This document shows positions 59,517 through 62,508 of a stretch of 64,000 bases of DNA, one piece after another. This DNA comes from an uncultured Alphaproteobacteria bacterium (GTDB lineage Bacteria; Pseudomonadota; Alphaproteobacteria; Rs-D84). Location of the stretch: NCBI GenBank assembly GCA_944389385.1, contig CALXMC010000006.1, forward strand, positions 1 through 64,000. The letters are read 5' to 3'. Made by a program: the position numbers and the translations under genes. Below the pieces are notes generated by a model. The model saw only the letters and a list, made by a program, of their open reading frames with translations. It was not told the DNA's origin and did not search any database. Numbering within the stretch: position 1 is the stretch's first letter; each line of letters begins with the position of its first letter.

Positions 59517-60278
59517 ATGAAAAAAATATCATACCTGGGGATTTTGTCTGTATTACTGTCATGGCCGGCATTTGCGGGATACAATGATGAATTATTTCGG
59601 GCCGAGGTCACAGAAGGACTGGATTTGGTTGGTGCACGTGCAAATGCCGATTTGCCGGACGATGCGCCTGGGGCATTGGGTGCGGATGTGTATTTGACTG
59701 ACGGTTCCGCCGATAACGAAGATATTCAATTGTTTATTCCGACAAAGATGTATATGCGTGCAGGTGGTGGATATACTTTACCGTTTGCAACAGATGTGGC
59801 GCGTATGGGTGATGTTGAATACGAAAGTAAAAACAGTTGGACGACCCAGATTGGCGTTGGTTGGAATTTGTCATCATATATTCGCACCGAACTGGATTTC
59901 CAAGAATCTACACTGGATTTTGATGGAACGGATTTGGGGGCGTCGTACCAAACAATTGGTGGAATGCTGTATTTCGATTTGGCGCGCAGATATGTTTTCA
60001 TGGGCGACATCACGTATCGTCGGCGCTTTGTGCCGTTCATGGGTGTTGGTGTTGCGGCCGGGTTGTACAGTTTTGATGGCGACGGTGGCGCGGATGGATT
60101 CGTAATGGCGGCGCCGCGTGCAACAATTGGGTTTAACGTTATGTTAAATGATTTGATTGGAATCGACATTATGTACCAATACCAGATGATGTTGGGTAAC
60201 GGGTTTGGTTGGAATGTTCGTGCGGGTGGCGTTGATAATATCAGTAATGTTATGGCGTCTTTCCGGGTGAATTTCTGA
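59517..60278 (+). CDS. Outer-membrane beta-barrel protein
   Basis: A 253-aa product. The signal peptide ends in WPAFAGYND. Alternating strands and a terminal aromatic residue (VMASFRVNF) fit an eight-stranded barrel (porin_OmpL1/Omp_b-brl type). A second barrel gene follows 18 nt on, so the two are an operon. Confidence 0.75.
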   Translation: MKKISYLGILSVLLSWPAFAGYNDELFRAEVTEGLDLVGARANADLPDDAPGALGADVYLTDGSADNEDIQLFIPTKMYMRAGGGYTLPFATDVARMGDVEYESKNSWTTQIGVGWNLSSYIRTELDFQESTLDFDGTDLGASYQTIGGMLYFDLARRYVFMGDITYRRRFVPFMGVGVAAGLYSFDGDGGADGFVMAAPRATIGFNVMLNDLIGIDIMYQYQMMLGNGFGWNVRAGGVDNISNVMASFRVNF

Positions 60279-60296
60279 TAAAGGACGGGGTTAAAA

Positions 60297-60935
60297 ATGA
60301 AATTAAAAATTCTGTGTGGCACAATTTTTTGTATGTTGACGTTTGCGGCAAATGCGGCGATTCCATACCGGACTGAACATATAGACAAACCAATCCAGAT
60401 ACCTATGTCGGGTAATGATGATCAGGCTTTGGCCCGTCTGCGTCGGTTTTATGTTGGCGGTATGTATGATTTTACATTGTGGAATGACGGCGAAGATTTA
60501 CGTGGCAAAAATACTTCTTCGTTCGAAGTTGTTGCGGGTGTTCGACCATTTGATATTTTCCGGGTCGAGGCTAACTATATCCACAATTCGGCAAAATGGG
60601 ATAAATTCGAATCGACCAACGAAATCGCAATGTTGAACGCGTTTTTGGATGCGCGTATTGGAAATATGTATCGTCCATTTTATCGTCAACGTATGGTTCC
60701 GTATGTTGGATTGGGCATCGGGGCGGCATGGAATAAATCCGATGACGTAACGATTGAAAACGAGTTTACGCCTGTGGCGGCGGTTATGGCCGGGTTGGGT
60801 GTCGAATTGGGCGAGTTTTTTGCACTGGATTTTGGTTACAGATACATGTACATGTTTACACCAAAATTCGAAATTGCGCCGAATTTTTCGCCCGCAGGAC
60901 ACCAATTCCGTGTTGGGGCACGTATACATTTCTAG
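60297..60935 (+). CDS. Outer-membrane beta-barrel protein, second
   Basis: A 212-aa product with signal ending in AANAA and final strand HQFRVGARIHF. Strands such as RMVPYVGLGIGAAWN and FALDFGYRYMYMF are typical. Probably an OmpA-like or Omp_b-brl porin-scale barrel without a C-terminal OmpA domain. Confidence 0.75.
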   Translation: MKLKILCGTIFCMLTFAANAAIPYRTEHIDKPIQIPMSGNDDQALARLRRFYVGGMYDFTLWNDGEDLRGKNTSSFEVVAGVRPFDIFRVEANYIHNSAKWDKFESTNEIAMLNAFLDARIGNMYRPFYRQRMVPYVGLGIGAAWNKSDDVTIENEFTPVAAVMAGLGVELGEFFALDFGYRYMYMFTPKFEIAPNFSPAGHQFRVGARIHF

Positions 60936-60947
60936 ACATCTGATATT

Positions 60948-61877
60948 ATGAAAACTTGTCCGTTTTTTGGCGTGTGTGGTGGATGCAAGTATGATGTTGC
61001 AGCATCTGATTATCGTGAAAAAAAATTGGATTTGATATCGGATTTACCAATAACAGGGCAGCCTTGGTGGGGTGTGCCCGCCACACGCCGGCGTGCAGAT
61101 TTCGCGTTTGCAGACGGTGCGTTTGGTTTTTATCGTAACCGTTCAAAAAATATAGTTCAAATAACCGAATGCCCTTTGTTGTGCCCGGAAATTAACGCGG
61201 TTATACCGCAATTGGCGGCAATGCCATGGGGCGGGGCGGGTGCGTGCTTGGTAACTTTGTGTGATAATGGGTTGGATGTTGCTGTAACGTCGTCTGTGCC
61301 ATATTTTTCATCTGAATTCAAGCGTGCGTCTGAAAATTTGCCTGTAATACGCGTTACATGGAATGGTCGGGTTGTAATGCAAAAAATACAACCGACTGTG
61401 AATTTCGCAGGACACGTTGTTGATTATTCGCCAAATGCGTTTTTACAACCGACCATCCCCAGTGAAAATGCAATTCGCGACATGGTTATAAAAGAGGCGT
61501 CTGGTGCACATCGTGTGGCTGATTTATTTTGTGGGTTGGGGAATTTTACATTTGCGTTAAATGCGGATGGTTTTGATATATCGGGCATTGGGATAAAACG
61601 TGATTTATTTGTACATCCATTGACTGTTGGAATGTTGAATCAGTACGACTGTGTTGTAATGGATCCGCCGCGCGCCGGCGCGTATGCACAATGTCGTGAA
61701 TTGGTAAAAAGCAATGTTAAACGTGTGATTTACGTTTCGTGCAATCCAGATTCTTGGCGGCGTGATGCGGGCATATTGTCGCGGGGCGGATTTGAATTAA
61801 AACACCTTGTCCCCGTTGACCAGTTTTTGGGCAGTGTTCATTGGGAATTATTTTCAGTATTCATTCGTAATAAATAA
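60948..61877 (+). CDS. 23S rRNA (uracil) methyltransferase, RlmD/RlmC type
   Basis: A 309-aa product, shorter than RlmD and without a TRAM domain. Iron-sulfur cysteines lie in CPFFGVCGGC plus CPLLCPE. SAM site is DLFCGLGNFTFAL, MDPPRAGA holds the active region, and VSCNPDSW the catalytic Cys; HWE near the end is the Glu base. It methylates C5 of a uracil, most likely in rRNA. The exact position cannot be told. Confidence 0.82.
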   Translation: MKTCPFFGVCGGCKYDVAASDYREKKLDLISDLPITGQPWWGVPATRRRADFAFADGAFGFYRNRSKNIVQITECPLLCPEINAVIPQLAAMPWGGAGACLVTLCDNGLDVAVTSSVPYFSSEFKRASENLPVIRVTWNGRVVMQKIQPTVNFAGHVVDYSPNAFLQPTIPSENAIRDMVIKEASGAHRVADLFCGLGNFTFALNADGFDISGIGIKRDLFVHPLTVGMLNQYDCVVMDPPRAGAYAQCRELVKSNVKRVIYVSCNPDSWRRDAGILSRGGFELKHLVPVDQFLGSVHWELFSVFIRNK

Positions 61878-61879
61878 AA

Positions 61880-62052
61880 AAACGCCGGCGGTTTCCCGCC
61901 GGTGTTTCCGAATGCCCCGAAAGGAAGGAAAGGAGAAAAAGAAATTGGGCATTCTAAACCAAGTATGGGGCCCAGAGTCCAGAGGAGAGAGAATGTAGGA
62001 GGGAGTCTGAATCCCTGAACCCCATTGTGTCGCAGGGTTATCCCCTTTGACG
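61880..62052 (-). ncRNA. Candidate minus-strand small RNA with pyrimidine loop
   Basis: On the minus strand, TTGACA (62087-62082), a 17-bp spacer and TACATT (62064-62059) form a promoter with start near 62052. The transcript contains GGG/CCC mini-hairpins, an ATGGGG/CCCCAT stem (61965-61970 with 62020-62025), a GAATGCCC/GGGCATTC stem (61910-61917 with 61947-61954) around a 29-nt C/T-dominated loop, and a terminator CCGGCGG/CCGCCGG with T7. No credible frame is present. The CTCC-rich loop and linker could bind Shine-Dalgarno sequences. No known family recognised. Confidence 0.6.
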
Positions 62053-62058
62053 AATCGA

Positions 62059-62087
62059 AATGTAATACATTTTTAGTTATTTGTCAA
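62059..62087 (-). promoter_or_regulatory. Promoter of the candidate small RNA
   Basis: TTGACA and TACATT on the minus strand, spaced 17 bp. A second TTGACA lies 13 bp further upstream. Confidence 0.6.
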
Positions 62088-62268
62088 GTATTTTTGTCAA
62101 ATTTATTTTTTTAGTGTTTGTTTTAGGATGCAACTCCTTGATTTTTCGGTGTTTTAGGAAATCGTCCTTGTTGTTTGTCACGCTGTGTTGGAATAAAATC
62201 AATATCAGACATAAGTCAATTATGTCAATAAATTCGGATTTTTCCGAATAAAACCACAGGAGAGAGAA

Positions 62269-62508
62269 ATGACACACGAAGATGTATGGCGGGCAATCGA
62301 AAGATTTGCAACAGAACACGGAATGTCGTGTTCGGGACTGGCGAAATGCAGCGGGTTGGATCCAACCACCTTCAACCGCAGTAAACGTTGGTCCAAAGAA
62401 GGTCAGCCACGATGGCCGTCGACCAACAGTATTTCCAAAATACTATCTTCAACGGGCGCCAGTATTAACGATTTTACAAAATTCATAGATTCCCATGAAC
62501 GTCAGTAA
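62269..62508 (+). CDS. Short repressor-type DNA-binding protein (HTH only)
   Basis: A 79-aa product with AGGAGAGAG Shine-Dalgarno. THEDVWRAIERFA, GLAKCSGLDPTTFNRSKRW and PRWPSTNSISKIL..TGAS match the N-terminal DNA-binding domain of alphaproteobacterial S24/LexA-like repressors. The peptidase domain expected after about residue 85 is absent; a terminator follows. It may act as a constitutive repressor. Confidence 0.8.
   Translation: MTHEDVWRAIERFATEHGMSCSGLAKCSGLDPTTFNRSKRWSKEGQPRWPSTNSISKILSSTGASINDFTKFIDSHERQ

What the first reader, a model, noticed from the sequence alone, without database searches (positions are those of the whole stretch)
61880..62087. Candidate anti-Shine-Dalgarno small RNA with a 29-nt pyrimidine loop
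On the minus strand there is a TTGACA-17-TACATT promoter, a compact fold, and a terminator with T7. An 8-bp stem presents a loop of nearly only C and T, complementary to AAGGAAGGAAAGGAG. A second CTCCTC-rich stretch lies between the other stems. Known: several alphaproteobacterial sRNAs use CCUCCUCCC loops. Inference: a global translational regulator or a ribosome-site decoy target.
Basis: partly seen in the sequence, partly recalled or inferred. Interest (0 to 1): 0.75.

Follow-up and report, generated by a model that had tools for sequence, protein, structure and literature searches.

The report
Conserved two-loop ribosome-site-blocking small RNA
A family of tiny-genome gut and termite bacteria carries an unreported small RNA whose two pyrimidine loops are almost frozen in evolution while the stems around them change, and which most likely switches genes off by covering the start sites of their messenger RNAs, in bacteria that seem to lack the usual RNA-pairing helper protein Hfq.

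Summary
Minus strand 62052-61876 of a Candidatus Enterousia-type genome (Alphaproteobacteria, order Rs-D84, about 1 Mb) is a small-RNA gene: RpoD-type promoter, 5' hairpin, two hairpins with long pyrimidine loops, terminator. A covariance model finds it in 168 of 201 genomes of the order, at least 12 genera of one family, and outside that order in none of about 380 other alphaproteobacterial genomes. Loop 1 (AGACTCCCTCCTACATTCTCTCTCCTCT) is invariant in 47 sequences; 21 of 25 stem pairs show double compensatory changes. The promoter is in 132 of 132 loci, always on this strand. No Rfam family matches. Loop 2 fits the genome's own ribosome sites (AAAGGA/AAGGAA) better than shuffled loops do. 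Loop 1 is complementary to the start site of the divergently encoded 79-aa HTH protein; that motif is kept in genera where the gene has moved away (13/22) and absent in relatives lacking the RNA (0/6). Hfq was not found. Best reading: a dual-loop anti-initiation sRNA that works like alphaproteobacterial 'cuckoo'/ar14 RNAs but is not a member. Translation block, targets and expression are inferred; nothing shows transcription.

The parts
62059..62087 (-). promoter: -35 TTGACA (62087-62082), 17-nt spacer, -10 TACATT (62064-62059)
   Evidence: motif in 132 of 132 loci with enough upstream sequence, spacer 17 in 116
62095..62100 (-). second conserved TTGACA-type box 12-13 nt upstream of the -35 (role unknown; possible regulator or upstream element)
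   Evidence: alignment; TGAC/TGTC box upstream in 117 of 132 loci
61876..62052 (-). the small RNA, about 175 nt (TSS inferred 6-8 nt after the -10)
   Evidence: promoter-to-terminator span; fold z -5.3; 168 of 201 genomes of the order
62029..62051 (-). 5' hairpin (GTC...GAC closing pairs), variable in length between species
61965..62025 (-). hairpin 1: 13 + 6 bp stem carrying loop 1
   Evidence: 13 of 17 pairs with double changes across 47 sequences
61981..62008 (-). invariant 28 nt of hairpin 1, loop 1: AGACTCCCTCCTACATTCTCTCTCCTCT (complement AGAGGAGAGAGAATGTAGGAGGGAGTCT)
   Evidence: no change in 47 sequences from about 12 genera; partial match ATTCTCTCTCCTC in another family (L202)
61910..61954 (-). 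hairpin 2: 8-bp stem carrying loop 2
   Evidence: 8 of 8 pairs with double changes, 99.5% of cells paired
61919..61944 (-). loop 2: TTTCTTTTTCTCCTTTCCTTCCTTTC, near-invariant in the genus, its CTCCTTTCCTTCCTT core kept in most other genera
61876..61902 (-). intrinsic terminator: CCGGCGGGAAACCGCCGG then T7
   Evidence: hairpin + T5 found in 105 of 124 loci
62269..62508 (+). HTH79: divergent 79-aa Cro/C1-like DNA-binding protein, lone N-terminal domain of an HTH-S24 regulator; likely partner and target
   Evidence: divergent neighbour in 105 of 125 loci, mostly 75-96% identical; 51% identical to the N-terminus of a 218-aa S24 protein of Sinorhizobium
62253..62271 (+). predicted target site: HTH79 start region, ...caGGAGAGAGAAATG, complementary to loop 1
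   Evidence: duplex -18.7 kcal/mol; set of 106 sites beats shuffled loops

Best explanation
The locus is a trans-acting small RNA gene with two antisense heads. Each of two hairpins presents a long single-stranded pyrimidine loop that imitates, and extends, the anti-Shine-Dalgarno tail of 16S rRNA. Loop 2 (UUUCUUUUUCUCCUUUCCUUCCUUUC) pairs with the AAAGGA/AAGGAA/AAGGAGAAA ribosome sites of many mRNAs; loop 1 pairs with a narrower set whose start sites read (A)GGAGAGAGAA-AUG, above all the mRNA of the divergently encoded 79-aa HTH regulator, and keeps the ribosome off. Shown here: the gene, its strand, its structure, its conservation, the complementarity and its statistics. Inferred: transcription, translation block, target identity, and that HTH79 and the RNA form a regulatory pair.
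For: Gene and fold. Conservation. Structure: 95.7% of cells paired, 21 of 25 pairs with double changes, 0 of 500 shuffles. Loops invariant while stems covary. Genome SD hexamers AAAGGA, AAGGAA, AAGGAG lie within the loop 2 complement; ortholog sets all at -12 kcal/mol or better with loop 2: 32 against 16.7 +/- 6.6 for shuffled loops, 0 of 40. HTH79: mean -14.7 kcal/mol with loop 1 over 106 sites; 2 of 200 mono- and 3 of 200 dinucleotide shuffles do as well, while neighbouring genes show no signal. HTH79 orthologs of other genera, mostly not adjacent, keep GGAGAGA in 13 of 22; 0 of 6 in order members without the RNA; loop 1 energy -16.9 against -13.0, p 0.01.
Against: No expression data. Loop 1 has no genome-wide excess at start sites (16 ortholog sets against 23 for shuffles). 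GGAGAGA is no commoner among GGAG-type start sites in genomes with the RNA (18 of 221) than in two without it (7 of 96). A 28-nt invariant loop is longer than antisense seeding normally requires. Energies ignore accessibility; species are not independent. The single best loop-2 target (SIMPL gene, -28.9 kcal/mol) is kept only in close relatives, though its start site tends to fit one loop or the other (3-4 of 60 shuffles as good). The 16S tail could not be read because no 16S was found in this assembly.
Confidence: 0.6

Rival explanations
1. Protein-binding RNA: the invariant loops are recognised by a protein (ribosomal protein bS1, a cold-shock-type or another pyrimidine-binding protein), so the RNA is a scaffold, sponge or RNP, and the complementarity to start sites follows from its pyrimidine content.
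For: 28 nt without one change in 47 sequences exceeds usual seed length; loop 1 lacks a genome-wide start-site excess.
Against: Loop 2 beats composition-shuffled loops on conserved start sites; HTH79 sites beat mono- and dinucleotide-shuffled loop 1; loop 2 length and letter order drift between genera, as for a seed rather than a fixed protein site.
Confidence: 0.2
2. The RNA's main job is a single dedicated circuit: a mutual or feedback switch with the divergent HTH79 regulator (RNA silences HTH79; HTH79 controls the RNA promoter), other pairings being incidental.
For: Divergent pairing in 105 of 125 loci and unusually high HTH79 identity; loop-1-complementary start site kept across genera; second conserved TTGACA box upstream of the promoter.
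Against: In several genera HTH79 is elsewhere and some genomes with the RNA have no HTH79 hit (G188, G190, G201, G202); loop 2 has a broad fit.
Confidence: 0.25
3. The functional transcript is from the plus strand: a purine-rich GGA-loop RNA that would sequester a CsrA-type protein.
For: The complement shows AGGA/GGA motifs in both loops; hairpins fold on either strand.
Against: Promoter and T-run terminator lie on the minus strand; the promoter is found in all testable loci and no such promoter on the other strand; G-U pairs fit the minus RNA.
Confidence: 0.03

Closest known systems
ar14 / 'cuckoo' sRNAs (NfeR1, SmelA075/SmelA099 of Sinorhizobium and other Rhizobiales; PMC10746234, PMC3927594)
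   Same: Several hairpins whose loops carry an anti-Shine-Dalgarno sequence kept while the stem sequences drift; alphaproteobacterial RpoD promoter; [quoted passage not shown]
   Different: No CCUCCUCCC motif; two different loops of 22 and 29 nt instead of repeated 9-nt motifs; extra 5' hairpin; another order; single copy as a rule; no Rfam match.
aR8 sRNAs (MmgR, SisA-D of Caulobacter; PMC12559287)
   Same: Conserved anti-SD stretch (UUUCCUCCCU) pairing with many 5' regions; alphaproteobacterial.
   Different: There one 10-nt single-stranded stretch below a weak hairpin, Hfq-bound, multi-copy in Caulobacter; here two covarying hairpin loops and no Hfq found.
CcsR1 (RF02791, Rfam: 'Conserved CCUCCUCCC motif stress-induced RNA 1')
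   Same: Pyrimidine anti-SD motif; weak chance-level alignment in the scan (13.1 bits).
   Different: Far below the gathering score of 65.3; motif absent.

Membership tests
ar14 / cuckoo RNA | CCUCCUCCC in each hairpin loop | tested here: not met
   no CCTCCTCCC on the locus; loops read directly
ar14 / cuckoo RNA | several hairpins with anti-SD loops and freely varying stems | tested here: met
   two such hairpins, 21 of 25 pairs with double changes, loops invariant or nearly so
ar14 / cuckoo RNA | silencing of mRNAs by pairing at the start site | not testable with these tools
   only predicted complementarity
aR8 (MmgR/Sis) | UUUCCUCCCU single-stranded core below a weak hairpin | tested here: not met
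   core absent, loops lie inside hairpins
any Rfam 15 family | score above the curated threshold | tested here: not met
   no match at this locus in the window or in nine relatives' loci
6S RNA (RF00013) | covariance model match | tested here: not met
   no match anywhere in the own genome; the control rings in Caulobacter
Hfq-dependent sRNA | Hfq encoded in the genome | tested here: not met
   0 of 21 genomes of the order, 14 of them good; controls ring

The most novel reading that the evidence does not exclude
A dual-specificity anti-initiation RNA, one loop a general mimic of the 16S anti-SD tail and the other dedicated to a LexA-derived lone DNA-binding domain encoded back to back with it, forming a conserved Hfq-free global switch (probably of envelope and secreted proteins) in bacteria that have lost most other regulators.
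Probability: 0.25. Interest if true: 0.75.

Novelty: new variant of a known kind. Interest (0 to 1): 0.62.

Why it matters
It would be one of the most deeply frozen antisense loops known, kept through genome reduction in an uncultured family found in the guts of livestock, poultry and termites, and it seems to work without Hfq. It gives a clean comparative test of how an sRNA with anti-Shine-Dalgarno loops avoids shutting off all translation, and a handle on regulation in a lineage where I found no experimental work on gene regulation.

Tried and rejected
6S RNA: no match in the genome. Known Rfam families: none; the best sub-threshold hits (ylbH, Leu leader) rest mainly on the terminator. Long unique target of loop 1: no second full complement within one mismatch of AGGAGAGAGAATG other than scattered sites. 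Genome-wide GGAGAGA enrichment as a signature: failed. Loop 1 as a generic anti-SD: failed. Enrichment of signal-peptide genes among the best targets is significant in four genomes with the RNA (p 0.009 to 8e-5) and not in two without it (p 0.15, 0.78; smaller samples), but such genes have stronger ribosome sites for any pyrimidine loop, so it is only suggestive. Plus-strand CsrA-sponge idea: rejected on promoter strand.

Full report
What is there. On the minus strand between the convergent methyltransferase-like gene (60948-61877, +) and the divergent gene HTH79 (62269-62508, +) lies a complete small-RNA gene: a TTGACA-17-TACATT promoter, a short 5' hairpin, hairpin 1 (19 bp, 22-nt loop), hairpin 2 (8 bp, 29-nt loop) and an intrinsic terminator with T7. 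The fold is 5.3 standard deviations better than shuffles. Nothing in Rfam 15 matches the locus or that of distant relatives.

Whose it is. The genome is 0.99 Mb in 11 contigs. The listed GTDB records with the exact 25-nt loop are proteobacterial MAGs, mostly from animal and termite guts, among them Candidatus Enterousia species; this is the order Rs-D84 with reduced genomes, no flagella, and a presumed symbiont or parasite life (PMC12306168). A handful of 'viral' contigs hold the loop; three of them show the same bacterial neighbours and look like host DNA.

Conservation. DNA similarity finds it in 33 of 35 genomes of the genus. The covariance model R1, built from hairpins 1 and 2, finds it in 168 of 201 genomes of the order, 113 of 126 good ones, over at least 12 genera of one family, plus a weak one-hairpin relative in another family. 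In 385 genomes drawn across the class only members of the same genus match. Across 47 sequences 95.7% of pair cells are standard pairs, 21 of 25 pairs have changes on both sides, and no shuffle or slid structure comes near. Loop 1 is invariant over all of these; loop 2 is nearly invariant in the genus and drifts in length but keeps its pyrimidine core in most other genera. Stems that covary around frozen loops are the signature of an RNA whose loops do the work.

Strand. A promoter of the same class is found in 132 of 132 loci with enough upstream DNA, with a 17-nt spacer in 116, and never in the matching place on the other strand; a terminator hairpin with T5 is found in 105 of 124.

What the loops fit. 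In sampled stretches the commonest start-site hexamers include AAAGGA, AAAAGG, AAGGAA and AAGGAG; most are contained in the complement of loop 2. In 312 ortholog sets from four genomes, 32 have every member at -12 kcal/mol or better with loop 2, against 16.7 +/- 6.6 for shuffled loop 2, none of 40 shuffles reaching it. Loop 1 shows no such excess (16 against 23). Its complement, AGAGGAGAGAGAAUG, resembles a whole ribosome site with start codon, and such sites precede recurrent genes: HTH79, a SIMPL-domain membrane protein, a family of large secreted cysteine-bearing proteins, outer-membrane barrels and a KefC-type antiporter.

HTH79. This gene is the divergent neighbour in 105 of 125 loci, and is more conserved than the other neighbours. 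Over 106 start sites the mean energy with loop 1 is -14.7 kcal/mol; 2 of 200 mono- and 3 of 200 dinucleotide-shuffled loops do as well; ORF140, BPL, MT and two barrel genes give nothing. In other genera, where HTH79 mostly lies elsewhere, 13 of 22 start sites keep GGAGAGA, against 0 of 6 in order members that lack the RNA (about 0.013 by a one-sided Fisher test worked by hand, species not independent). HTH79 corresponds to the DNA-binding domain of larger HTH-S24 proteins of rhizobia.

Mechanism. I take it as an antisense RNA that covers start sites with two loops of different breadth. The pairing steps are inferred from complementarity. Hfq was not found in 21 genomes of the order although controls ring, so long loops and duplexes may stand in for a chaperone; that is inference.

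Comparison. It works like the ar14 or cuckoo RNAs, whose hairpin loops carry CCUCCUCCC while stems vary and which silence mRNAs at the start site, NfeR1 without Hfq. It is not a member: the motif is absent, the loops differ from each other and are two to three times longer than the motif, and no model matches. It also differs from the aR8 RNAs.

Limits. No expression data; energies without accessibility; partial genomes; phylogenetic dependence; the 28-nt invariance of loop 1 is longer than its best target match explains and leaves room for a protein partner.

Noticed in passing
window 62269-62508 (+): 79-aa protein equals the lone DNA-binding domain of alphaproteobacterial HTH-S24 (LexA/CI-like) regulators, mostly 75-96% identical across the genus, with further paralogs of the same kind elsewhere in these genomes.
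   Followed up: partly
L300-L325 and further matches: Large family of secreted proteins in open frames of about 700-1000 aa with cysteine motifs (GCMDQFC), mostly 7-15 matches per genome in the genus, no Pfam match for the piece tested; possible host- or cell-interaction proteins.
   Followed up: no
whole order: No Hfq found in 21 genomes of the order although control genomes ring; 6S RNA was also not found in the own genome.
   Followed up: partly
L202:1501-1579 (-): Genome of another family of the order has a CTTGAC promoter followed by one hairpin whose loop keeps ATTCTCTCTCCTC only: a possible ancestral or reduced one-loop form.
   Followed up: partly
window 60948-61877 (+): RlmD/RumA-like methyltransferase of 309 aa, far below the curated family cut-offs and lacking part of the profile; apparently a shortened version.
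   Followed up: no
window 59517-60935 (+): Two neighbouring genes for small (probable) outer-membrane beta-barrel proteins near the sRNA, kept near it in many relatives.
   Followed up: partly
L174-L178 (IMG/VR contigs): Contigs filed as viral that carry this bacterial sRNA, at least three with its usual chromosomal neighbours; probably host DNA misfiled as virus.
   Followed up: partly
L193, L203 and genomes G087, G097, G128, G146, G162, G175: A second model match in a few draft genomes; in some cases at contig ends, so it may be an assembly duplicate rather than a paralog.
   Followed up: no
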